Part shown: in pieces, positions 4,189 through 15,120 of the stretch
Position numbering within the stretch: the first letter of the stretch is position 1
How the letters are laid out: each line of letters starts with the position of its first letter
Assembly (NCBI GenBank): GCA_013821865.1
Contig: PNJM01000022.1
Span: forward strand, 1-16,650
DNA from: Rhodocyclaceae bacterium
GTDB taxonomy: Bacteria; Pseudomonadota; Gammaproteobacteria; Burkholderiales; Rhodocyclaceae
DNA: 16,650 nt
Direction: 5' to 3'
Translations under genes and position numbers: made by a program
The notes under the pieces: generated by a model
What the model saw: only the letters and a program-made list of their open reading frames with translations
Database searches by the model: none
What the model was told of the DNA's origin: nothing

Positions 4189-6309
4189 ATGAACTACCCG
4201 CTGCTGAAACGACTGCTGCCTTTCCTGCGCTGGCTGCCCTATCCGGGAATGGCGCTGCGCGCCGACTTTCTCGCCGGACTCACCGTGGCGCTGGTGCTGG
4301 TGCCGCAATCGATGGCCTACGCCCAGCTGGCCGGCATGCCGCCCTATTACGGCCTCTACGCGGCCTTCCTGCCGGTGATGGTGGCGGCCCTCTGGGGCTC
4401 ATCGAACCAGCTCGGCACCGGCCCGGTTGCCGTGGTCTCCCTGCTGACGGCGTCGACGCTCGCACCCCTCGCTGCGCCGGGGTCCGAGCAGTTCATCGCG
4501 CTGGCAATCATGCTGGCGCTGATGGTCGGCATCTTCCAGCTGGCGCTCGGCGCGTTCAAGCTCGGCGTGGTGGTGAATTTCCTCTCGCATCCCGTCATCG
4601 TCGGTTTCACCAACGCGGCGGCGATCATCATCGGGTTGTCGCAAATCAACAAGCTGATCGGCGTGCCGATGGGCCGCTCCGAGCACTTCATCCAGGACAT
4701 CTGGGGCGTGCTCAAGCAGGCCGGCGACACGCACCTGCCGACGCTGGCCATGGGGGCCGCCGCCATTGCCATCATGTGGGCCTTGCGCAAGTGGGCGCCC
4801 AGGATGCCGGGCGTGCTGATCGCGGTGGCGATCACGACTACGACAAGCTGGTGGGTCGGCTTCGAACGCAATGCCACAGGCAGGATCGAGGAGGTTGTCG
4901 ATGCCGAGGCCAAGGCGCTGCTCGCGGAGCATGCCCGCACCGCGGCGCGCATCGATGAGCTGAATGCCCGGATCGCCGCCAGGTCGGCGGAATTGAAGAA
5001 GCTGCGGAAGGAACATGGCGAGCTTGGCCACGAGACGGCGACGCTGAACTACGAAATCGAGTTGCTCAGGCTGCAGCTGAAAGACCGCGAAAACGAGAAC
5101 CGCGGACGCAACCGCGCCATCCGCAGTTTCGTTTTCGAACGCTTGCCCGGAGCCAACGGTCAGCCTGCGAAACTGTATGCCGAGGGCAGGGTGCCGCAGG
5201 GCGAGCAGTCAGACGGCCACCGCTGGCGCATTGCGCATGCGGGCGCCAATGAGTTCAAGCTGGTCGGCGGCGGCGAAGTGGTGGGCCGGGTGCCGGAGGG
5301 ATTGCCCTCTCTCGACCTGCCGAAAATCTCCTGGGAGATGCTCGGCAGCCTGCTTTCCGCCACCGTCGTGATATCGCTGGTGGGTTTCATGGAGGCGATC
5401 TCCATCGCCAAGGCCATGGCAGCCAGGACCAAGCAGAAGATCGACCCGAATCAGGAACTGCTCGGCCAGGGCCTGGCCAACGTCGTCGGCGCGCTGAGCC
5501 AGTCTTTCCCCGTGTCGGGCTCGTTCTCGCGCTCCGCCGTGAACATCGATGCCGGCGCGGTCACCGGCATGTCGTCGGTGTTCACCGGCCTTTTCGTCCT
5601 GCTCACCCTGCTGTTTTTGACGCCGCTCCTCTATCATCTGCCGCAGGCGGTGCTGGCGGCGGTGATCATCATGGCGGTGATCGGCCTCGTCAATTTCGAG
5701 GCCGTCAAGCACGCCTGGCAGGCCAGCCGCCATGACGGCGTCGCCGCGATCGTCGCCTTCGTCGCCACGCTGGCTTTCGCGCCCCATCTCGACAACGGCA
5801 TCCTGGCCGGAGCCGGCCTCGCCATCCTGCTCTACCTGCTGCGCACCATGAACCCCCGCGTCGCCATCCTCGGCCGCCACCCGGACGGCACGCTGCGCGA
5901 CGCGAAGGTGCACAACCTGCCGGCCTCCGAGATCGTCACGGCGGTGCGCTTCGACGGGCGCCTGTATTTCGCCAACGTCGCCTATTTCGAGGACGCCATC
6001 CTCGAGGCCGTCGCCGCCAACCCCAAGGCGCGCTGGCTGCTGGTGGTGGGCGACGGCATCAACGAGCTCGACGCATCGGGCGAGGAGGTCGTGCACCATC
6101 TCGTCGAGCGGCTGCGGAGCAACGGTGTGAACATGGTTTTCTCGGGCCTGAAGAAGCAGGTGCTCGACGTGATGCGCGCCACCGGGCTGTTTGATGCGAT
6201 CGGCGAGAAGAACTTCCATATCACCGCGGACCATGCGCTGGAGGTGATCAGCGCCGAGATCGCGTCGCAGGGCATCGGGGGCGCCTTCTGCCTGCTGCCG
6301 CGGAAGTGA
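4189..6309 (+). CDS. SulP family inorganic anion transporter with coiled-coil insertion and C-terminal STAS domain
   Basis: Inner-membrane anion permease of the SulP/SLC26 family (sulfate, bicarbonate or other anions; substrate not readable). At 706 residues it is longer than the usual 550-600. The membrane core starts with RADFLAGLTVALVLVPQSMAYA and YYGLYAAFLPVM, and continues later with ELLGQGLANVVGALSQSFPVSGSFSRSAVN, all SulP signatures. The STAS domain runs from about residue 574 to the end and contains FDGRLYFANVAYFEDAI and the DASG motif (628-631). Between the seventh helix (ending WWVGFERN, residue 228) and GLPSLDLP (371-378), where a short loop is normal, sits an insertion of about 120-135 residues. 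It comprises a charged Glu/Lys/Arg/Leu-rich coiled coil (about 232-312) and a small beta-like segment. Initiation at ATG 4189 has only a weak AAGAA upstream. The Ehr-type operon follows after 74 nt. Confidence 0.93.
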   Translation: MNYPLLKRLLPFLRWLPYPGMALRADFLAGLTVALVLVPQSMAYAQLAGMPPYYGLYAAFLPVMVAALWGSSNQLGTGPVAVVSLLTASTLAPLAAPGSEQFIALAIMLALMVGIFQLALGAFKLGVVVNFLSHPVIVGFTNAAAIIIGLSQINKLIGVPMGRSEHFIQDIWGVLKQAGDTHLPTLAMGAAAIAIMWALRKWAPRMPGVLIAVAITTTTSWWVGFERNATGRIEEVVDAEAKALLAEHARTAARIDELNARIAARSAELKKLRKEHGELGHETATLNYEIELLRLQLKDRENENRGRNRAIRSFVFERLPGANGQPAKLYAEGRVPQGEQSDGHRWRIAHAGANEFKLVGGGEVVGRVPEGLPSLDLPKISWEMLGSLLSATVVISLVGFMEAISIAKAMAARTKQKIDPNQELLGQGLANVVGALSQSFPVSGSFSRSAVNIDAGAVTGMSSVFTGLFVLLTLLFLTPLLYHLPQAVLAAVIIMAVIGLVNFEAVKHAWQASRHDGVAAIVAFVATLAFAPHLDNGILAGAGLAILLYLLRTMNPRVAILGRHPDGTLRDAKVHNLPASEIVTAVRFDGRLYFANVAYFEDAILEAVAANPKARWLLVVGDGINELDASGEEVVHHLVERLRSNGVNMVFSGLKKQVLDVMRATGLFDAIGEKNFHITADHALEVISAEIASQGIGGAFCLLPRK

Positions 6310-6383: not shown

Positions 6384-8393
6384 ATGCCCGCCCTGCTGCC
6401 CATCGATGCCCTGCTGATCGCCGCTTGCGCCTGGCTGGTGCTGGGGATCGCCGGACTCGTGGCACCGCGCAACCTGCGCTTCATCAGCAAGACCCTGTTC
6501 CCGCTGGGCGCCCTGGTCGGCATGATGGTCGGCCTTGTGGCGCTCGGCTTTCTCGGCGAATCGCCGGAAGTCGCCGTGCTGGCCATCGGCCTGCCCGACC
6601 TGCCTTTCCACCTGCGCCTCGACAATCTCGCCGCCGTGTTCGCGCTGCTGCTGGGTTTTGCCTCGGTCGGCATCTCCATCTTCGCCGCAGGTTACTTCCG
6701 CAAGGGCGAGGGCACGGCGCCGGGCCTGATGTGCCTGCAATACCACATTTTCCTCGCCAGCATGCTCATGGTGCTGCTGGCCGACGATGCCTACGCCTTC
6801 ATGGTGGCGTGGGAGTGCATGGCGCTGTCTTCGTTCTTCCTGGTCACCACCGATCATCGCCATGCCGAGATTCGCCGCGCCGGCTACCTCTACCTGCTGA
6901 TCGCCCACATCGGCGCCATCGCCATCCTGCTCTCCTTCGGCGTGATGAGCTCGGGCAGCGGCGACTACAGCTTCGCCGGCATGCGTGCCCAGTCGCTGTC
7001 GCCGTTCTGGGGTTCCGCCGCCTTCCTGCTCGCGCTGCTCGGCTTCGGCGCCAAGGCCGGCCTGCTGCCGGTGCACGTCTGGCTGCCGGAGGCGCATCCG
7101 GCCGCGCCCTCGCCGGTGTCGGCAATGATGAGCGGGGTCATGCTGAAGACCGCCATCTACGGCCTGCTGCGGGTGAGCTTCGACCTTCTCGCCGAGCCGC
7201 TCTGGTGGTGGGGCGTGGTGGCCATGAGCATCGGGCTGGCTACCGCCGTGTTCGGCGTCCTCTACAGCACGGTGCAAAGCGACATGAAGCGCCTGCTGGC
7301 CTATTCCTCCATCGAGAACATCGGCCTGCTCGCCGTCGGCATCGGCCTGACGCTGATTTTCCATGCCTACCGCATGGAGTCCCTGGCGGCCTTGGCCATG
7401 ACGGCAGTGCTGTACCACTGCCTGGCCCACGCCGGCTTCAAGAGCCTGCTGTTCCTGTGTACCGGCTCGGTGCTGCATGCCACCAGGGAGCGCAGCCTCG
7501 GCAAACTGGGCGGGCTGATTCATCGCATGCCCTGGGTCGCCTGGCTGGCCCTGGCCGGTGTCATCGCCAGCGCCGGCCTGCCGCCCCTGTCGGGCTTCGT
7601 CTCGGAGTGGCTGCTGTTGCAGAGTTTCCTCTTCTCGCCGGGACTGCCTCATCCCTGGCTCAACATGGTGGTGCCGGTAGCGGCCGCGGTGGTGGCCCTG
7701 GTGGCGGCGCTGGCGGGATTCGCCATGGTCAAGTTCTACGGCATCATCTTCCTTGGCCAGATGCGCGAGGAGAACCTCAAGGACGCCCATGACGCCGGTC
7801 CCTGGGAGCGCGTCGGCCTCGTCTGGCTGGCGGGCCTGACCCTGGCGCTGGGCGTGCTGCCCTCTACCGTGATCGGCTTCATCGATGCCGCCACGCGCCA
7901 GCTTCTCGGCACCGGCCTGGCCGACAAGGTGCGCGAGCACGGCTGGTGGATGCTGGCGCCGATCTCCCCCGAGCGGGCCAGCTATGAGCCGCTCATCTTC
8001 CTCGCCACCATCGCCGCCGCGGTGCTGCTGGGGCGGCAGTTGGTGCGCCGCCTCTATCATGGCCGCCTGCGCCGGTCAGCGGCATGGGATTGCGGCTACG
8101 TGTTCCAGAGTGCCCGCGCCCAGGACACGGCCGAGGGCTTCAGCCAGCCGATCCGCCGCATCTTCGAGCCCATGTTCCGCATGGAGCGGCATTTCCCCAC
8201 CATCCGCGACGAGAAGCCCTATTACAGCGTCAAGGTCGAGGACCATTTCTGGCACTGGCTCTACCTGCCCGTGGCGCGCCTGGCCGAACGGGGCTCGCGG
8301 CTCATCACCCGGCTGCAGGGCGGGCGCATCGCCATCTACCTGCTCTACAGCTTCCTCACGCTGATCGTGCTCTTGCTGGTGGCCCGGCCATGA
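6384..8393 (+). CDS. hyfB: HyfB-like proton-translocating antiporter-type membrane subunit
   Basis: Large NuoL/M/N-type (proton_antipo_M) subunit of a complex I / group 4 hydrogenase-like membrane complex, expected to move protons or Na+. It has 669 residues, close to E. coli HyfB (672). The helix-5 glutamate is in VAWECMALSSFFL (E144), and the helix-7 lysine is in GFGAKAGLLPVHVWLPEAHP (K224), both standard for ion-translocating members; AAPSPVSAMMSG and LLAYSSIENIGL follow. A C-terminal part (WDCGYVFQSARAQDTAEGFSQ onward, ending in a last membrane helix) is typical of HyfB. ATG 6384 is preferred over an in-frame TTG at 6357, because the extra nine residues carry no membrane character and the TTG lacks a ribosome site. 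It is the first gene of the six-gene operon, 74 nt after SulP, and is followed by an unusual 175-nt hairpin cluster. Confidence 0.93.
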   Translation: MPALLPIDALLIAACAWLVLGIAGLVAPRNLRFISKTLFPLGALVGMMVGLVALGFLGESPEVAVLAIGLPDLPFHLRLDNLAAVFALLLGFASVGISIFAAGYFRKGEGTAPGLMCLQYHIFLASMLMVLLADDAYAFMVAWECMALSSFFLVTTDHRHAEIRRAGYLYLLIAHIGAIAILLSFGVMSSGSGDYSFAGMRAQSLSPFWGSAAFLLALLGFGAKAGLLPVHVWLPEAHPAAPSPVSAMMSGVMLKTAIYGLLRVSFDLLAEPLWWWGVVAMSIGLATAVFGVLYSTVQSDMKRLLAYSSIENIGLLAVGIGLTLIFHAYRMESLAALAMTAVLYHCLAHAGFKSLLFLCTGSVLHATRERSLGKLGGLIHRMPWVAWLALAGVIASAGLPPLSGFVSEWLLLQSFLFSPGLPHPWLNMVVPVAAAVVALVAALAGFAMVKFYGIIFLGQMREENLKDAHDAGPWERVGLVWLAGLTLALGVLPSTVIGFIDAATRQLLGTGLADKVREHGWWMLAPISPERASYEPLIFLATIAAAVLLGRQLVRRLYHGRLRRSAAWDCGYVFQSARAQDTAEGFSQPIRRIFEPMFRMERHFPTIRDEKPYYSVKVEDHFWHWLYLPVARLAERGSRLITRLQGGRIAIYLLYSFLTLIVLLLVARP

Positions 8394-8568
8394 GAATCTC
8401 CCCACCCCCCCCGACCCCCGCCCCAGTGCGGGGGAGCCCACAAGCTCGCTGCGCTCGCGGGTTACGGGGCGCTTCGTGGAGACGGGAGCGCGATTGTTCG
8501 CTCCGCGAACGTGCCGTCCGGCCTTGGGGCGGCCCGGCGGCCGGACTGCGCCGCATTCGGGAAATGGC
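8394..8568. repeat. Cluster of GC-rich hairpins splitting hyfB from hyfC
   Basis: This non-coding 175-nt stretch holds at least three perfect inverted repeats. They are CCCCCGC / GCGGGGG (8415-8421, 8428-8434), GGAGCG / CGCTCC (8485-8490, 8499-8504) and GTCCGGCC / GGCCGGAC (8516-8523, 8539-8546). It begins with a C-rich run (8398-8419) and includes GCTCGCTGCGCTCGC (8444-8458), a sequence style common in dispersed intergenic repeats of high-GC proteobacteria. All other junctions in this operon are overlaps or gaps under 6 nt, so it looks like an insertion. The same order of parts is seen in the element inside the adenosyltransferase gene. Confidence 0.65.
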
Positions 8569-9522
8569 ATGAACGTCTTCGGCTTTCTGGGACAGATGTT
8601 CGCCATCGCGCTCGCGCTCCTGCTGGCGCCGCTGCTCACGGGCTGGGTGAACCAGTGCCGCGCCTGGTTGCAGAACCGTTCGGCGCCGCCGCTGCTGCAG
8701 CCGTACTACATGCTGCACAAGCTCTTCCTCAAGGATGTGGTGCTGGCCCACGGCGCTTCCCCTCTGTTCCGCTTCGCGCCCTTCGTAGTGTTCGGCTGCA
8801 TGGTGCTGGCGTGCGCGATCATCCCCACGCTGTCTACCGACCTGCCGCTCGCGCCCGCAGCGGACACGATCGCCCTGGTCGGCGTCTTCGGCCTGGCGCG
8901 CATCTTCATCGCGCTCGCCGCGATGGATGTCGGCACCTCCTTCGGCACCTTGGGCGGTCGGCGAGAAATGCTGATCGGCTTCCTCGCCGAGCCGGCCCTG
9001 CTGATGGTGATCTTCACCACGGCGATGATCTCCCAGTCCACCTCGGTCGCCACCATCGTCGAGACCCTGGCCCACCGGGACTTCATCATCTATCCCAGCC
9101 TGGCCTTCGCCGGCATCGCCTTCACCTTCGTCTCCTTCGCCGAGAACGCCCGCGTGCCGGTGGACAATCCGGCCACGCACCTGGAACTGACCATGATCCA
9201 CGAGGCCATGATCCTGGAGTACTCGGGGCGCCACCTGGCGCTGATCGAGTGGGCGGCGAGCCTCAAGCTGTACGCCTATTCCTGCCTCGGCCTGGCGCTG
9301 TTCTTCCCCTGGGGCATCGCCGAGGGCGACAGTTTCCTCGGCCTGCTGCTGGCGATCCCGGTGCTGGCGATCAAGCTTGCCATCGGCGGCGCCTTGCTCG
9401 CCGGCATCGAGACCATCAACGCCAAGGTGCGCATCTTCCGCGCGCCCGAGTTCCTCGGCACCGCCTTTCTCTTCGCCGTGCTGGGCCTGCTGGTGCGCCT
9501 GCTGCTGGAAGGACGGGTATGA
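8569..9522 (+). CDS. hyfC: HyfC-like (NuoH-type) membrane subunit
   Basis: The NuoH/HyfC/HycD family subunit anchors the peripheral arm and forms part of the ion and quinone path in complex I relatives. It has 317 residues with about eight membrane helices, the family's usual size. Recognisable blocks are LQPYYMLHKLFLKD, GTLGGRREM, and FAENARVPVDNPATHLELTMIHEAMILEYSG, the acidic-residue-rich loop conserved in this family. ATG 8569 is chosen: GGGA at 8559-8562 sits six bases upstream and the conserved MNVFGFLGQMFAIALALLLAP start follows. The open frame extends upstream to 8476, but that part is repeat-derived sequence. The stop overlaps the next start (ATGA, 9519-9522). Confidence 0.93.
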   Translation: MNVFGFLGQMFAIALALLLAPLLTGWVNQCRAWLQNRSAPPLLQPYYMLHKLFLKDVVLAHGASPLFRFAPFVVFGCMVLACAIIPTLSTDLPLAPAADTIALVGVFGLARIFIALAAMDVGTSFGTLGGRREMLIGFLAEPALLMVIFTTAMISQSTSVATIVETLAHRDFIIYPSLAFAGIAFTFVSFAENARVPVDNPATHLELTMIHEAMILEYSGRHLALIEWAASLKLYAYSCLGLALFFPWGIAEGDSFLGLLLAIPVLAIKLAIGGALLAGIETINAKVRIFRAPEFLGTAFLFAVLGLLVRLLLEGRV

Positions 9523-10187
9523 ACCTGGCCGTTCCGCTTTCCTCCCAGCTCATCAACCTGTTCGCCTCGGTGATCCTGCTGCTGGCCTTCGCCATGCTGG
9601 CGCAGCGGCGGGTGCTGGCGCTGATCAACCTCTTTGCGCTGCAGGGGCTGACGCTCGCCCTGTCCACCCTGGTGGTGGCCGTCACCACGGGCCAGACCCA
9701 CCTCTACTGGTCCGCCGGCCTGACGCTGGTCCTCAAGGCCCTGCTGCTGCCGTGGATCCTGCACCGCCTGGTGCGGCGTCTGGAGGTCAAGGGGGACGTG
9801 GAGTCTCTCATCAAGGTGCCCACGACGATGCTGGTGGGCATCGCCCTGGTGATCATCGCCTTCAACGTCGCGCTGCCCATCTCGCAGCTGTCCAATACCA
9901 TCAGTCGCGGCACCCTGGGCATCGCCCTGGCCACCGTCATGCTGGCCTTCCTCATGATGATCACGCGCAGCAAGGCGATCCCGCAGGTGGTCGGCTTCCT
10001 CGCCATGGAGAACGGCCTCTTCCTCGCCGCCACCAGCGCCACCTACGGCATGCCGATGGTGGTGGAGCTGGGCATCGCACTTGACGTCCTTGTGGGCGCC
10101 ATCATCCTCGGCGTGTTCTTCTTCCAGATCCGCGAGCAGTTCGACAGCCTCGATATTCGCCATCTCGAGAAACTCAAGGAACGCTGA
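9519..10187 (+). CDS. hyfE: HyfE-like membrane subunit with NuoK-like part
   Basis: Small membrane subunit of 222 residues (E. coli HyfE has 216) with about seven helices. The C-terminal half resembles NuoK, with QVVGFLAMENGLFLAA containing the membrane-embedded glutamate expected in NuoK relatives, plus a second acidic residue in VVELGIALDVLVG. It is presumed to connect the NuoH-like subunit with the antiporter-like subunits in ion transport. The start codon overlaps the hyfC stop by four bases (ATGA) and is preceded by GGAAGGA at 9507-9513, five bases upstream, a strong ribosome site. The downstream gene starts 5 nt after the stop. HyfD, which lies between hyfC and hyfE in the E. coli hyf operon, is absent here. 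Confidence 0.92.
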   Translation: MNLAVPLSSQLINLFASVILLLAFAMLAQRRVLALINLFALQGLTLALSTLVVAVTTGQTHLYWSAGLTLVLKALLLPWILHRLVRRLEVKGDVESLIKVPTTMLVGIALVIIAFNVALPISQLSNTISRGTLGIALATVMLAFLMMITRSKAIPQVVGFLAMENGLFLAATSATYGMPMVVELGIALDVLVGAIILGVFFFQIREQFDSLDIRHLEKLKER

Positions 10188-10192
10188 ACGTC

Positions 10193-11644
10193 ATGGATTT
10201 CTTCGTTCTCACCCTCGTTATTCCCATCGTCGGCGGCCTGCTGCTGACAGTGGTGGGCGAGCGCGCCTGGGCGCCCAACCTCAACGTCATCGCCAGCCTG
10301 GGCACCTTCCTCGCCTCCGCCCTGCTCACCATCGAGATCGTCGCCAACGGGCCGCGCTTCGCCTTCGGCGAAATGTTCTTCATCGACTCGCTCAACGTCT
10401 TTTTTGTCGCCCTGACCGCCTTCGTCGGCCTTACCACCAGCATTTTTTCCGGCCCCTACATGAAGAACGAGCAGGAGCACGGCAAGCTCACCGTGCCGCG
10501 CCTGCGCCTCTACAAGAGCATGTTCCAGATCTTCATGTTCACCATGCTGGTGGCGCTGACCACCAACAATCTCGGCATCCTCTGGGTCGCCATGGAGGCG
10601 GCGACGCTGACAACCGTACTGCTGGTCTCGCTCTACCGTACGGCAGCCAGCCTGGAGGCGGCGTGGAAATATTTCATCCTTTGCGGCGTCGGCATCGCCC
10701 AGGCCCTGTTCGGTACCATCCTGCTCTACTTCGCCGCCGAGCGCGTGCTCGGTGAAACCGGCAACGCGCTGCTGTGGACCCACCTGGTGGAGGTGAAAGG
10801 GCAGCTCGAACCGACCATCATGGCCCTGTCCTTCATCTTCCTGCTCGTGGGTTATGGCACCAAGGTAGGCCTGGCGCCGCTGCACAACTGGCTGCCCGAC
10901 GCCCATGCCGAGGGCCCGACGCCGGTCTCGGCCGTGCTCTCCGGCCTGCTGCTCAACGTCGCGCTCTACGCCATCCTGCGCTGCAAGGTGCTGGCCGACG
11001 GCGCCATTCCCGGCGGCTTCGCCGGCAACCTGATGATGGGCTTCGGCCTGCTGACGCTGGTGGTGGCGGCCTTCTTCCTCTCGCGGCAGAAGGACATCAA
11101 GCGCATGTTCGCCTACTCGTCCATCGAGCACATGGGCCTCATCACCTTCGCCTTCGGCATGGGCGGGGCGGTGGCCAACTTCGCCGGCCTGCTGCACATG
11201 ACCATGCATTCGCTGACCAAGTCGGCCATCTTCTTCGCAGTGGGCCACGCCGCGCAGAAAAGCGGCACCCAGCAGATGGAGGATATCCGCGGACTGATCC
11301 GCATCAACCCCGTCATCGGCTGGGGCCTGATGCTGGGGACGCTGGCCATCCTCGGCATGCCGCCCTTCGGCGTCTTCGCCAGCGAGTTCATGATCCTCAC
11401 CCACGCCATGAAGCATCATCCCTGGGCCACGCCGGTGCTGCTGCTGGCGCTCGGCGTCGCCTTTGCCGCCATCTTCGGCAAGGTGCAGCCGATGGTGTTC
11501 GGCGACACCCATGCCAAGCCCCTGCCGCATGCGCCGGCCATCACGCCGGTGTTCGTGCATCTCGCCCTGGTGCTGATGATCGGCCTCTACATTCCACCCT
11601 ATCTCACGCGCTGGTTCCACGAGGCGGCTCGGATGCTCGGCTAG
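10193..11644 (+). CDS. hyfF: HyfF-like antiporter-type membrane subunit
   Basis: Second NuoL/M/N-type ion-translocating subunit, 483 residues (E. coli HyfF has 526). Key charged residues are present: the helix-5 glutamate in WVAMEAATLTT (E135) and the helix-7 lysine in YGTKVGLAPLHNWLPDAHAE (K224), followed by GPTPVSAVLSGLLLN, RMFAYSSIEHMGL and MPPFGVFASEFMI. The protein ends shortly after its last helix, with no long lateral helix as in NuoL. AAGGA lies 12 nt before ATG 10193, within the end of hyfE, so translation is probably coupled. With HyfB, the complex would have two antiporter-like modules, against one in E. coli hydrogenase-3 and three in hydrogenase-4. Confidence 0.93.
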   Translation: MDFFVLTLVIPIVGGLLLTVVGERAWAPNLNVIASLGTFLASALLTIEIVANGPRFAFGEMFFIDSLNVFFVALTAFVGLTTSIFSGPYMKNEQEHGKLTVPRLRLYKSMFQIFMFTMLVALTTNNLGILWVAMEAATLTTVLLVSLYRTAASLEAAWKYFILCGVGIAQALFGTILLYFAAERVLGETGNALLWTHLVEVKGQLEPTIMALSFIFLLVGYGTKVGLAPLHNWLPDAHAEGPTPVSAVLSGLLLNVALYAILRCKVLADGAIPGGFAGNLMMGFGLLTLVVAAFFLSRQKDIKRMFAYSSIEHMGLITFAFGMGGAVANFAGLLHMTMHSLTKSAIFFAVGHAAQKSGTQQMEDIRGLIRINPVIGWGLMLGTLAILGMPPFGVFASEFMILTHAMKHHPWATPVLLLALGVAFAAIFGKVQPMVFGDTHAKPLPHAPAITPVFVHLALVLMIGLYIPPYLTRWFHEAARMLG

Positions 11645-11646
11645 CC

Positions 11647-13218
11647 ATGCAACTGCTCGACGAACCCATCGATTTCGCACGCCAGGAGGGTGTTGGCGCG
11701 CCAGTCTGGACCGGGCGTGCCGCCGACAGCCAGGAACTGCAAGCCTTTGCCATCGCCGCCCACCGGGCCGACGGCCGCATTGCCGCGCTGTGGGGCTCCG
11801 ACTCCCGGCAGCGCGGCGGCGGCTTCCGCCTCGATTGCGTGTTCGGTCTCAACGAAGGTCATGCCTGGGTCAGCCTGGATCTGCCGGCGGAGAATCCCGC
11901 CTATCCCGACCTGGCCGGCATCTTCCCCGCCGCCAACCGCATGCAGCGCGCGACGTGCGATCTGGTCGGCATCGCCACGGAGGGCGGCGACCGGCGCCCC
12001 TGGCTGCGCCACGGTGCCTGGCCGGCGGACTGGTATCCGCTGCGCCACGATGCGGCGCAGTTGGCAAATGAGGGTGCCGGCTTCCCCAACGCACCGAGCG
12101 ACTACGACTTCGTCCAGGTCGGCGGCGATGGTGCCCACGAGATTCCCGTTGGGCCCATCCACGCCGGCATCATTGAGCCGGGGCACTTCCGCTTCTCGGT
12201 GATCGGCGAGCGCGTGCTGCGCCTCGAGCAGCGCTTGGGCTATCAGCACAAAGGCGTGGAAAAGCTGTACATCGGCATGAATGTCGCGGACGGCGCCCGG
12301 CTCGCCGGGCGCATCTCCGGCGACTCCACCTGCGCCTACGCCTGGGCCTATGCCGCCGCGGTCGAGGCGGCCTGCGGCGTCAGCCCGCCGCCGCGCGCCC
12401 TCCTGCTGCGGGCGCTGATGCTGGAGCGCGAGCGCGTCGCCAACCATCTCGGCGACCTGGGCGCGCTCGGCAACGACGCCGCCCTGGCCTTCGGCTTTTC
12501 CCAGTTCATGCGCCTCAAGGAGGACTGGCTGCGGCTGAACGGCGCGCTCTTCTGCCACCGCTTCATGATGGACAGCATCGTGCCCGGCGGCACCGCCCTC
12601 GACCTCGATGCGCCCGCGCTCGCCGCCATCGTCGAGCAGTGCGACGCTATCGGGCGCGAGGTGAAGGAACTCCAGAAAATCTACGACGAGCACGCCGGCC
12701 TGCAGGACCGTTTCCTCACTACCGGCGCCATCGACGCCGACCTGGCGCGGGAGTTGTCCCTCACCGGGGTGGCCGCCCGCGCCACGGGCATGATCCTCGA
12801 TGCGCGCATCCATCGCCAGGGCTACACCCCGCCGCCGCCCTACGCGATGCTGGGCGTACGCCCAGCCACGGACGAGCGCGGCGACGTGGCGGCGCGGGTG
12901 GCGGTGCGCTTTGCGGAAGTGTTCGAGTCCCTGCGGCTGCTGCGGGAGATCGCCGTCGGCCTGCCCGACAGCGGGGTGCGCATCGATGTGCCGCCCGTGG
13001 CCGATGGTTACGGCCTCGGCGTGATCGAAGGCTGGCGCGGCGAAGTGCTGGTGGGCGTGTCGTTCGACGGCGACGGCAGACTGGCCCGCGTCCATCCCCA
13101 CGATCCTTCCTGGCAGGCCTGGCCGGCGCTGGAGCATGCAGTGATGCGCGACATCGTTCCCGATTTCCCGCTCATCAACAAGTCGTTCAATCTTTCCTAC
13201 AGCGGAGTGGATCTGTGA
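11647..13218 (+). CDS. hyfG: HyfG-like fused NuoC-NuoD large subunit without [NiFe]-site cysteines (Ehr type)
   Basis: The peripheral large subunit has 523 residues. About 1-150 are NuoC-like and the rest NuoD / hydrogenase-large-subunit-like. GPIHAGIIEPGHFRFS (H172, H180), HKGVEKLYIG, and ERERVANHLGDLGALGND follow the HycE/HyfG pattern. In hydrogenases a CGIC motif precedes AYTTSVE and a DPCxxC motif closes the protein. Here the first aligns without gaps to S224-G225-D226-S227 before AYAAAVE (239-240), and the last is SFNLSYSG, with S517 and G520 in place of the cysteines. All four nickel ligands are therefore absent, and the protein ends right there, with no cleavable C-terminal extension. 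It should not evolve or take up H2; a quinone- or other redox-linked role, as proposed for Ehr complexes, is an inference. It starts two bases after hyfF. Confidence 0.9.
   Translation: MQLLDEPIDFARQEGVGAPVWTGRAADSQELQAFAIAAHRADGRIAALWGSDSRQRGGGFRLDCVFGLNEGHAWVSLDLPAENPAYPDLAGIFPAANRMQRATCDLVGIATEGGDRRPWLRHGAWPADWYPLRHDAAQLANEGAGFPNAPSDYDFVQVGGDGAHEIPVGPIHAGIIEPGHFRFSVIGERVLRLEQRLGYQHKGVEKLYIGMNVADGARLAGRISGDSTCAYAWAYAAAVEAACGVSPPPRALLLRALMLERERVANHLGDLGALGNDAALAFGFSQFMRLKEDWLRLNGALFCHRFMMDSIVPGGTALDLDAPALAAIVEQCDAIGREVKELQKIYDEHAGLQDRFLTTGAIDADLARELSLTGVAARATGMILDARIHRQGYTPPPPYAMLGVRPATDERGDVAARVAVRFAEVFESLRLLREIAVGLPDSGVRIDVPPVADGYGLGVIEGWRGEVLVGVSFDGDGRLARVHPHDPSWQAWPALEHAVMRDIVPDFPLINKSFNLSYSGVDL
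13204..13207 (+). promoter_or_regulatory. Ribosome binding site that decides the hyfI start
   Basis: GGAG at 13204-13207 lies seven bases before GTG 13215 but sixteen before ATG 13224. The spacing favours the GTG, whose last bases form the hyfG stop (GTGA), so hyfG and hyfI are probably translationally coupled. Confidence 0.55.
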
Positions 13219-13721
13219 TTCCAATGCTCAAGCGCATCCTGCGCACCGGCATCGTCACCGAGCCGCTGCCCGAGGCCGTCGAGGCCGAGAAGCGTGAGCT
13301 TGCGCGCCTACACGATGAAATCCTGCGCATCCTCGGCCGGGCCCTGACCATCCGCCAGGTCGATGCCGGCTCCTGCAACGGCTGCGAGCTGGAGATTCAC
13401 GCCCTCAACAATCCCTACTACAACCTGGAAGGGTACGGCATCAAGTTTGTCGCCAGTCCGCGCCACGCCGACATGCTGCTGGTCACCGGCCCGGTGACGA
13501 AGAACATGGAAAACGCGCTCAAGGTGGCCTATGACTGTACGCCCGATCCCAAGCTGGTGGTGGCGGTGGGCGATTGCGGCTGCACGGGTGGGATCTTCGG
13601 AGAAAGCTACGCCAGCTGCGGCGCGGTGGAGAACGCCATACCGGTGGATGTGCGCGTTCCCGGCTGCCCGCCGGCGCCCGCCGCGCTGCTGCGGGGCATT
13701 CTTGCGGCAGTGCGACGCTGA
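13215..13721 (+). CDS. hyfI: HyfI-like (NuoB-type) [4Fe-4S] small subunit
   Basis: Peripheral iron-sulfur subunit of 168 residues, equivalent to the complex I N2-cluster subunit NuoB and to HycG/HyfI, but much shorter than E. coli HyfI (about 250), so it is the core domain only. The four cluster ligands are visible: C54 and C57 in GSCNGCELEIHALNNPYY, C121 or C123 in GDCGCTGGIFG, and C151 in VPGCPPAP. The start is taken as GTG 13215 from its ribosome site; ATG 13224 (MLKRILRTGIV) would shorten it by three residues. As the only iron-sulfur protein in the operon, it would receive or deliver electrons at the HyfG interface. It is the last gene of the operon and convergent with chrA, 26 nt away; I see no clear terminator there. 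Confidence 0.92.
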   Translation: MIPMLKRILRTGIVTEPLPEAVEAEKRELARLHDEILRILGRALTIRQVDAGSCNGCELEIHALNNPYYNLEGYGIKFVASPRHADMLLVTGPVTKNMENALKVAYDCTPDPKLVVAVGDCGCTGGIFGESYASCGAVENAIPVDVRVPGCPPAPAALLRGILAAVRR

Positions 13722-13747: not shown

Positions 13748-15109
13748 TCAAACTATCAGCGTGTAGGCCAGCCCCACCGCCGCGCAGGCGCCGATCACCG
13801 GCATGATCCCCACCTTGTAGCGGAACAGGGCGATTGCCGCGGCGACGCCGATCAGGGCCGAGAACCATTCGAACCTGCCGGCGAAAGGCGTGGCTTGCGT
13901 GCCCTGCGGCCACAGCACGTGCCAGGCGAAGAACACCGCCAGGTTGATCACCACGCCGACCACGGCGGCGGTGATGCCGGTCAGCGGCGAGGTGAACTTG
14001 ATGTCGCCGTGGGTCGCTTCCACCAGCGGTCCGCCGATGAGGATGAAGAGAAACGAGGGCAGGAAGGTGAAGAAAGTCGCCACCGTGGCGCCCGCCGCGC
14101 CGGCGAGCAACAGCGAATCGGCTCCGAAGATCTGCTTGGTCCAGCCGCCGACGAAGCCGACGAAAGCCACCACCATGATGAGCGGCCCAGGCGTGGTTTC
14201 CCCCAGCGCCAGGCCGTCGATCATCTGCGGGCCGGTGAGCCAGCCGTACTGCTCGACGCCGCCCTGATACACATAAGGCAGCACCGCATAGGCGCCGCCG
14301 AAGGTGAGCAGCGCCGCCTTGGTGAAGAACCAGCCCATCTGCGTCAGCACGCTGCTCCAGCCGCCTTGCGACACGAGTAACGCCATCGAGCCGCCCCAGA
14401 TGCCGAGACCGATTGCGCAGTAGCCGACCAGCCTGCCCCAGGAGAAACGCACCCAGGCGGGGGGCGGCGTGTCGTCGTCGATGAGAGCCGGGCCGAAACT
14501 CTTGTCGGCGGCACCATGACCGCCACCGGTCTTGAATTTGCCGGGCGTGATCTGTCCGCCGATGTAGCCGAGAATGGCTGCCACCAGCACGATGGCGGGG
14601 AAGGGCACGTCGAAGGCAAAGATGGCGACGAAGGCCGCCGCCGCCATCGCCCACAGCACGCCGTTCTTCAGTGCGCGCGAGCCGATGCGGTACGCCGCGA
14701 ACACCACGATGGCGGTGACCGCCGGCTTGATGCCGTAGAGGATGCCGGCCACCGCCGGCACGTTGCCGAAGGCCAGGTAAATCCAGGTGAGGCCGATCAG
14801 CATGAACACCGAGGGCAGCACGAACAGCACGCCGGCGACGATGCCGCCCCAGGTGCGATGCATCATCCAGCCGATGTAGACGGCGAGTTGCGTCGCCTCG
14901 GGACCGGGCAGCAGCATGCAGTAGTTGAGCGCGTGCAGGAAACGGCGCTCGGAAATCCAGCGGCGGCGCTCGACCAGATCCTGGTGCATCATCGAGATCT
15001 GCCCGGCCGGGCCGCCGAAGCTGATGAAGCCGAGCTTCAGCCAGTAGCGGAAGGCTTCGCCGAGCGAGACGGGGGCGGGGGGCATGGCGGGGGTATCGAC
15101 GGTGTCCAT
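13748..15109 (-). CDS. chrA: CHR family (ChrA-like) two-domain anion transporter
   Basis: Inner-membrane transporter of 453 residues with two homologous halves, the long (LCHR) form. The first half has FISFGGPAGQISMMH (FGGPAGQ at 31-37) and LLPGPEATQLAVYIGW. The second has LLTFGGAYAVLPYVYQ and LGETTPGPLIMVVAFVGF, the matching motifs. A hydrophilic linker rich in Gly, Asp and Pro (TPGKFKTGGG...DDDTPPPAW) joins them. ChrA proteins export chromate, but family members in sulfur-oxidising autotrophs have been linked to dissolved inorganic carbon uptake, so the substrate is uncertain. The start is ATG 15109, because GAGGAG lies five bases upstream; the in-frame GTG at 15115 overlaps that ribosome site. 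It is divergent from the MFS gene and convergent with the Ehr-type operon. Confidence 0.94.
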   Translation of the reverse strand: MDTVDTPAMPPAPVSLGEAFRYWLKLGFISFGGPAGQISMMHQDLVERRRWISERRFLHALNYCMLLPGPEATQLAVYIGWMMHRTWGGIVAGVLFVLPSVFMLIGLTWIYLAFGNVPAVAGILYGIKPAVTAIVVFAAYRIGSRALKNGVLWAMAAAAFVAIFAFDVPFPAIVLVAAILGYIGGQITPGKFKTGGGHGAADKSFGPALIDDDTPPPAWVRFSWGRLVGYCAIGLGIWGGSMALLVSQGGWSSVLTQMGWFFTKAALLTFGGAYAVLPYVYQGGVEQYGWLTGPQMIDGLALGETTPGPLIMVVAFVGFVGGWTKQIFGADSLLLAGAAGATVATFFTFLPSFLFILIGGPLVEATHGDIKFTSPLTGITAAVVGVVINLAVFFAWHVLWPQGTQATPFAGRFEWFSALIGVAAAIALFRYKVGIMPVIGACAAVGLAYTLIV

Positions 15110-15114
15110 GGGCA

Positions 15115-15120
15115 CTCCTC
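15115..15120 (-). promoter_or_regulatory. Ribosome binding site that decides the chrA start
   Basis: GAGGAG on the minus strand, five bases before ATG 15109. It excludes the in-frame GTG whose first base is 15115, since that codon overlaps the site. Confidence 0.7.

What the first reader, a model, noticed from the sequence alone, without database searches (positions are those of the whole stretch)
6384..13721. Six-gene hydrogenase-4-like complex whose large subunit has lost all four nickel ligands (Ehr type)
HyfG aligns without gaps to the hydrogenase L1 region but reads S-G-D-S for C-G-I-C, and the C-terminal DPCxxC region reads NLSYSG. The protein also stops where hydrogenases carry a tail removed after nickel insertion. 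The membrane part keeps its ion-path residues (E144/K224 in HyfB, E135/K224 in HyfF). The result is a likely ion pump with a redox reaction that is not hydrogen turnover. Ehr complexes are known as a class, but their reaction is undetermined.
Basis: partly seen in the sequence, partly recalled or inferred. Interest (0 to 1): 0.7.

Follow-up and report, generated by a model that had tools for sequence, protein, structure and literature searches.

The report
Nickel-free hydrogenase-like membrane ion pump
The window encodes a six-part membrane complex built like an energy-saving hydrogenase but without the nickel site; such complexes are widespread, a relative has been published as a hydrogenase, and what it really does is still open.

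Summary
Confirmed. HyfG (11647-13218) reads RISGDS for RxCGxC and NLSYSG for DPCxxC, and has no C-terminal tail. This is not decay: in 227 distinct sequences of the clade D226 and K512 never vary, N515 and G520 almost never, and the tail is always 0 residues. HyfI keeps its four cluster cysteines, HyfB/HyfF their ion-path residues. The order is B-C-E-F-G-I in 55 of 55 loci with all six genes; the paired [4Fe-4S] motif of the hydrogenase ferredoxin subunit lies near hyfG in 1 of those 55, against 6 of 6 true hydrogenases.

The class is in print as Ehr. The same six-gene complex was studied as Azorhizobium Hyq and called a bidirectional 'endo-hydrogenase' from deletion mutants, although the 2012 paper already noted the missing CxxC pairs. 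I identified that locus by its primers. The three cysteines proposed there are absent here and in most sequences. In 40 of 63 Ehr-bearing genomes no HypD was found (18 of 36 near-complete ones), so a Hyp-built NiFe centre is unlikely there.

Best reading: a nickel-free, complex-I-like redox ion pump; electron partners unknown. In the window's subclade a SulP transporter sits upstream (27 of 36 loci).

The parts
4189..6309 (+). SulP-family anion transporter with STAS domain and a long inserted segment; 75 bp upstream of hyfB
   Evidence: Pfam PF00916/PF01740, TIGR00815 437 bits; nearest solved relative plant sulfate transporter 7lhv 336 bits, BicA-type entry 6ki1 89 bits; same-strand SulP within 3 kb upstream in 27 of 36 other loci of the >=68%-identity subclade, 0 of 41 more distant ones
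6384..8393 (+). hyfB, NuoL/antiporter-like membrane subunit
   Evidence: NF005086 893 bits; E144 80/80, K224 79/80
8560..9522 (+). hyfC, NuoH-like membrane anchor
   Evidence: PF00146; E136, E144, E209 59/59
9519..10187 (+). hyfE, small membrane subunit
   Evidence: NF008556 91.6 bits, below its cut-off of 136
10193..11644 (+). hyfF, NuoM-like membrane subunit
   Evidence: NF005045 858 bits; E135 109/109, K224 108/109
11647..13218 (+). hyfG, fused NuoC/NuoD-type large subunit without Ni ligands and without C-terminal tail
12310..12327 (+). L1 region R222-I-S-G-D-S227 in place of RxCGxC
   Evidence: S224 216/227, G225 225/227, D226 227/227
13177..13215 (+). C-terminal N511-K-S-F-N-L-S-Y-S-G-V-D-L523 in place of DPCxxC plus tail
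   Evidence: K512 227/227, N515 225/227, G520 226/227, D522 227/227; no tail in 227/227
13215..13721 (+). hyfI, NuoB-type subunit with one intact [4Fe-4S] site (C54, C57, C121, C151)
   Evidence: PF01058; each 109/109
13748..15115 (-). chromate-transporter-family protein (ChrA), convergent neighbour; not shown to belong to the unit
   Evidence: PF02417, TIGR00937; a relative within 4.3 kb of hyfI also in L005, L008, L009, L010, L029 and L139

Best explanation
This is a six-subunit Ehr complex of the same clade as Azorhizobium Hyq: a nickel-free relative of hydrogenase-4 and complex I that moves ions across the membrane and is driven by, or drives, a redox reaction next to the single [4Fe-4S] cluster of HyfI. 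Shown here: the Ni ligands and the processing tail are gone, a different conserved set of residues (S224, D226, K512, N515, G520) lies in the same two segments, the cluster ligands and ion-path residues are kept, and no ferredoxin subunit is encoded nearby. Inferred: because the HyfH wire is missing, a soluble low-potential carrier (ferredoxin or flavodoxin) docks directly on HyfI, and electrons are exchanged with a quinone or another small molecule in the HyfG pocket; the direction can reverse with the proton-motive force. The electron-partner step is a guess of about 0.3; the rest carries the confidence given.
For: Alignment to HycE; conservation in 227 sequences, which also holds in the 62 of them below 68% identity to the window: D226 62/62, K512 62/62, N515 61, G520 61, S224 53; HyfI and membrane residues; order B-C-E-F-G-I in 55 of 55 loci with all six genes; paired [4Fe-4S] motif within 8 kb of hyfG in 1 of those 55 (L043, 6.7 kb away) and in 6 of 6 hydrogenase loci; window and HyqG separated from six hydrogenases, NuoD and one NuoD-like row by a branch of support 100/99; no HypD found in 40 of 63 Ehr genomes, 18 of 36 near-complete ones, 3 of 4 single-contig ones.
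Against: Azorhizobium hyq deletion mutants lose H2 recycling and most microaerobic H2 evolution, which reads most simply as H2 chemistry. The quinone-binding His and Tyr of complex I are not in place. The loop 169-178, which would line the pocket, reads like a hydrogenase and is poorly predicted. HypD is commoner in Ehr genomes (23 of 63) than in the others (71 of 335; odds ratio 2.1, p 0.014, not corrected for kinship). I saw no partner gene linked to the operon outside the window's own subclade. In the tree two divergent Ehr rows (L085, L139) sit unresolved, branches are long and the bootstrap had not settled.
Confidence: 0.62

Rival explanations
1. Nickel-free H2 turnover: the complex is a real H2:quinone oxidoreductase, as the Azorhizobium work says, but uses a site other than NiFe.
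For: H2 evolved at 20 uM O2 (pmol per 10^9 cells per min): wild type 12, delta-hup 16, delta-hyq 175, double 540; below 1 uM O2: 7,100, 61,000, 2,600, 14,000. Second-shell residues of hydrogenases are kept: E177 226/227, R464 227/227, both 6/6 in hydrogenases.
Against: No Ni ligands, no tail; the three cysteines offered as alternative are C in 35, 19 and 34 of the 62 sequences below 68% identity and in none of the 165 nearer the window. The authors state that no cell-free assay was at hand. Word searches for 'complement' gave 0 hits in the 2010 and 2012 papers and only the PCR sense in the 2009 passages. The deletion also removed hyqR.
Confidence: 0.08
2. Inorganic-carbon role in the window's subclade: SulP (and sometimes gamma-carbonic anhydrase) work with Ehr in energised bicarbonate or CO2 uptake, comparable in logic to NDH-1 CO2 hydration complexes.
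For: SulP upstream in 27 of 36 subclade loci; gamma-carbonic-anhydrase/CcmM-like gene between the anion transporter and hyfB in L044 and L116; RuBisCO at 150 bits or more in 19 of 21 genomes with HyfG at 68% or more, against 14 of 29 other Ehr and 11 of 30 Ehr-free genomes of the family; SulP and Chr families contain HCO3- transporters (PMC10880623, passages).
Against: Among solved structures SulP is closest to a plant sulfate transporter, far from BicA. The anhydrase is in only 2 of the loci held, 90% alike, perhaps one event. More distant loci have no SulP upstream (0 of 41). The RuBisCO threshold was set after seeing the list, SulP was not checked in each of the 21 genomes, and the contrast is confounded by kinship.
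Confidence: 0.12
3. Sulfane-sulfur chemistry at the HyfI cluster, as in archaeal MBS; SulP, SLC13 and TauE neighbours would move the sulfur anions.
For: MBS is a relative without a NiFe site that reduces polysulfide at the proximal cluster (PMC7684303, passages). An SLC13/CitMHS-type gene upstream in 4 loci (L020, L029, L038, L116) and a TauE-type gene in 4 (L022, L042, L051, L116).
Against: MBS has a cluster held by three cysteines and keeps two of the four Ni cysteines plus MbsN; HyfI keeps all four with CxxC spacing in 109 of 109, HyfG keeps at most one, and no MbsN-like pair of motifs is near.
Confidence: 0.07
4. Not a redox enzyme: a cation/proton antiporter with a structural peripheral arm.
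For: No electron wire, no Ni, no recognisable quinone site.
Against: Strict retention of four cluster cysteines in HyfI and of a polar pocket in HyfG.
Confidence: 0.08

Closest known systems
Hyq 'endo-hydrogenase' of Azorhizobium caulinodans (hyqRBCEFGI; PMC2650096, PMC2930871, PMC3357923)
   Same: Six structural genes in the same order; HyqG is fused NuoC/D, 504 aa, reads RVSGDST and NKSFNCSYAG, 44% identical to the window over 442 residues; HyqI 61%. Both CxxC pairs missing, as the 2012 paper states.
   Different: Window lacks C258, C491, C497 (G275, I510, L516), lacks an adjacent hyqR, has SulP upstream; no association with nifD within its family sample.
Ehr complexes (PMC6349859, PMC10284858; Marreiros 2013 recalled, not held)
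   Same: Group-4-hydrogenase relatives without NiFe ligands and with Mrp-like subunits.
   Different: The FDH-linked Ehr proposed for Riflemargulisbacteria has fdhA/nuoEF-like partner genes in the genome; none next to the operon here.
E. coli hydrogenase-3/-4 (HycE, HyfG)
   Different: Ni cysteines, C-terminal tail and ferredoxin subunit all missing here.
MBS of Pyrococcus (sulfane sulfur reductase)
   Same: Complex-I relative without a NiFe site that is held to pump ions.
   Different: MBS has a three-cysteine cluster, two leftover Ni cysteines and the MbsN ferredoxin subunit.
Respiratory complex I (NuoCD/NuoD)
   Different: Quinone His/Tyr positions differ; no NuoEFG and no NuoI encoded next to the operon (window ORFs).

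Membership tests
Ehr (energy-converting hydrogenase-related) | subunits homologous to group-4 hydrogenases | tested here: met
Ehr (energy-converting hydrogenase-related) | Ni/Fe-coordinating cysteines (both CxxC) absent | tested here: met
Ehr (energy-converting hydrogenase-related) | Mrp/antiporter-like membrane subunits | tested here: met
   HyfB, HyfF:
Ehr (energy-converting hydrogenase-related) | groups with named Ehr reference sequences in a tree | not tested
   no named Ehr reference was fetched; the tree holds Hyq, six hydrogenases, NuoD and other rows
Hyq (Azorhizobium endo-hydrogenase) | six structural genes B-C-E-F-G-I, fused NuoC/D large subunit without CxxC | tested here: met
Hyq (Azorhizobium endo-hydrogenase) | three cysteines C258/C491/C497 stated as completely conserved | tested here: not met
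   G275, I510, L516 in the window; C in 35/19/34 of 227. It is therefore called a relative of Hyq in the same clade, not a Hyq.
Hyq (Azorhizobium endo-hydrogenase) | hyqR and NifA/sigma-54 control upstream | tested here: inconclusive
   only 75 bp between SulP and hyfB, so no regulator gene there; the promoter patterns found nothing convincing in the window but also failed on the Azorhizobium control
Hyq (Azorhizobium endo-hydrogenase) | in vivo H2 uptake/evolution | not testable with these tools
   needs experiment
[NiFe] hydrogenase group 4 | four cysteine ligands | tested here: not met
[NiFe] hydrogenase group 4 | cleavable C-terminal tail | tested here: not met
   0 aa
[NiFe] hydrogenase group 4 | ferredoxin-type subunit (HyfH) | tested here: not met
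   no paired motif within 8 kb of hyfG in the window
Complex I | quinone-site His38/Tyr87 of Nqo4 (roles recalled) | tested here: not met
   I176 and G225 in the alignment
MBS | proximal cluster with three cysteines; MbsN present | tested here: not met

The most novel reading that the evidence does not exclude
The Azorhizobium genetics is right and complexes of this family turn over H2 without nickel, at the D226/K512/N515 pocket beside the HyfI cluster: a further kind of hydrogenase, present also in bacteria in which no HypD, hence no NiFe-centre assembly, was found.
Probability: 0.06. Interest if true: 0.95.

Novelty: new member of a known kind. Interest (0 to 1): 0.5.

Why it matters
The family is common (63 of 398 sampled Pseudomonadota genomes at 40% identity or more) and often annotated as hydrogenase (source names), so genomes may be credited with H2 metabolism they do not have. 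The conflict between sequence and published mutants can be settled largely by one strain: a hypD deletion in Azorhizobium. The missing ferredoxin subunit, the invariant D226/K512 pair and the failure of the three-cysteine proposal narrow the search for the reaction. The SulP and gamma-carbonic-anhydrase neighbours give one lineage a testable physiological lead.

Tried and rejected
Link to N2 fixation: weak in the phylum sample (11 of 63 Ehr genomes with nifD over its cut-off against 29 of 335 others, odds ratio 2.2, p 0.041), none in the family sample (22 of 58 against 35 of 92, odds ratio 1.0). The three genomes of the window's genus at 99-100% completeness have no nifD-type match. The own nifD hit is a NifE-like fragment beside a NifV-like gene (named from the sequence by recall) and may be contamination.

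Promoter patterns for sigma-54 and NifA: uninformative, the positive control failed. Three conserved cysteines as an alternative metal site: rejected. Conserved redox partner gene outside the window's subclade: none seen in the flanks; upstream genes were an HTH gene in one group of loci, methionyl-tRNA synthetase (recalled identity) in three, and others. My ORF caller misassigned several frames in these GC-rich loci, so the SulP count rests on tblastn. A complex model of HyfG-HyfI-HyfC and pocket geometry could not be made: single chains only, no coordinates returned. Marreiros 2013 is not held. Passages searched in PMC8467165, PMC6397845 and PMC4725956 gave nothing on this complex.

Rows dropped or re-counted: L002, L003, L067, L068 (copies of the window); L164-L167 (25-34% identity, other families), 24 of the 87 matching genomes, all whose best match is below 40% identity (of these I looked at G166, G240, G039, G363, G093 and G345: true hydrogenases or other nickel-less families), 4 of 62 genomes below 40% (G434, whose gene is the divergent Ehr L139, and G518, G404, G470). 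The 227-sequence set leans to close relatives: 165 at 68% or more, 62 below, 3 of these under 40%. The ferredoxin count was first 63 loci; some of those held only a cross-hit for hyfB, so the strict count is 55. RuBisCO was searched in 80 of the 150 genomes of the family sample.
Full report
What is there. The window is contig 22 of a draft genome (2.76 Mb, 548 contigs, 81.7% complete) whose nearest relatives are Rhodocyclales. Six genes run in one direction: hyfB, hyfC, hyfE, hyfF, hyfG, hyfI (6384-13721), with a SulP transporter 75 bp upstream and a convergent chromate-transporter-family gene downstream.

The rest of the machine. HyfI keeps C54, C57, C121 and C151 in 109 of 109. What is missing is the electron wire: of 55 loci that hold all six genes, all in the order B-C-E-F-G-I, one (L043, 6.7 kb away) has a paired [4Fe-4S] ferredoxin motif within 8 kb of hyfG; 6 of 6 hydrogenase loci have one.

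Who else has it. In an even sample of 398 Pseudomonadota genomes, 63 carry a HyfG at 40% identity or more; in the window's family 58 of 150. One genome (G512) carries two such operons tail to tail.

The published relative. Azorhizobium caulinodans hyqRBCEFGI was described as an 'endo-hydrogenase' from operon-deletion mutants (PMC2650096, abstract and passages; PMC3357923, parts 1-4 of 5 of the text; PMC2930871, passages). I found the locus by a primer end printed there, in 1 of 391 genomes of that family; three further primers match in the expected order, two (A and D) do not match exactly, and HyqG has the published 504 residues. It is 44% identical to the window's HyfG over 442 residues, with the same replaced site. 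The 2012 paper itself says that HyqG lacks both CxxC motifs and that a NiFe site is 'uncertain, if not unlikely', and points to three conserved cysteines instead. Those are cysteine in 35, 19 and 34 of the 62 more distant sequences and in none of the 165 nearer the window. The paper also says that no cell-free assay was at hand; I found no complementation by word search.

A test across genomes. Building NiFe(CN)2CO needs HypD (established knowledge). No HypD was found in 40 of the 63 Ehr genomes, in 18 of the 36 with at least 98% completeness and at most 2% contamination, and in 3 of the 4 single-contig ones (G287, G139, G217; G246 has it). So in many carriers the complex is unlikely to hold a Hyp-built centre. 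Against a clean separation: HypD is commoner in Ehr genomes (23 of 63) than in the others (71 of 335; odds ratio 2.1, p 0.014, not corrected for kinship), and both Azorhizobium and the window's genome hold other frames of the [NiFe] large-subunit family.

Mechanism. Shown: nickel-free site, intact cluster ligands, intact ion-path residues, no ferredoxin subunit. Inferred: redox-driven ion pumping, with a soluble carrier docking on HyfI and a small molecule, perhaps quinone, in the HyfG pocket. Against quinone: the positions of the quinone-binding His and Tyr of Nqo4 (roles recalled) read I176 and G225.

Neighbours. Apart from the window, SulP lies on the same strand within 3 kb upstream of hyfB in 27 of 36 loci at 68% identity or more, and in 0 of 41 below that. 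In L044 and L116, the only two of the loci held, a 186-residue protein close to gamma-carbonic anhydrases (Cam 101 bits, CcmM 83 bits) sits between the anion transporter (SulP or SLC13-type) and hyfB; its named relatives include 'carbonate dehydratase' of Sulfuricystis, Sulfuritalea and Thiobacillus. RuBisCO at 150 bits or more is in 19 of 21 genomes with HyfG at 68% or more, 14 of 29 other Ehr genomes and 11 of 30 Ehr-free ones. This points to inorganic carbon, but among solved structures the SulP is nearest to a plant sulfate transporter, and SLC13 and TauE neighbours would suit sulfur anions. A search for papers that join SulP, Ehr or hydrogenase-4 with these bacteria gave one paper, seen only as a listing.

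Novelty. The class is in print (Ehr: PMC6349859 and PMC10284858, passages; Hyq: 2009-2012). New here, as far as my ten paper searches of an open-licence library show: the invariant replacement site over a broad set, the failure of the three-cysteine proposal outside part of the family, the HypD test, and the SulP/gamma-carbonic-anhydrase linkage.

Noticed in passing
L136 (G512:C1:2503000-2522900): Two complete Ehr operons tail to tail in one genome, HyfG 59% and 46% identical to the window's.
   Followed up: no
L044:4307-4867 and L116:14803-15363: Gamma-carbonic-anhydrase/CcmM-like gene directly upstream of hyfB, behind SulP (L044) or an SLC13-type transporter (L116).
   Followed up: partly
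L164, L165 (G039, G363): Divergent HyfG/HyfI-like pair at 25-26% identity with RINAxDS and no cysteine ligands; a different nickel-less family in genomes of 2.0-2.5 Mb.
   Followed up: no
L139 (G434): Divergent Ehr (33% identity) with several HyfB-like matches upstream and a ChrA 71% identical to the window's downstream.
   Followed up: no
window 4189-6309: SulP carries a long insertion (about residues 220-363, coiled-coil-like by eye) between its two matched halves.
   Followed up: no
L170 (G000:C43): NifE-like fragment next to a NifV-like gene in the own genome, although three genomes of the genus at 99-100% completeness have no nifD-type match: contamination or a variable trait.
   Followed up: partly
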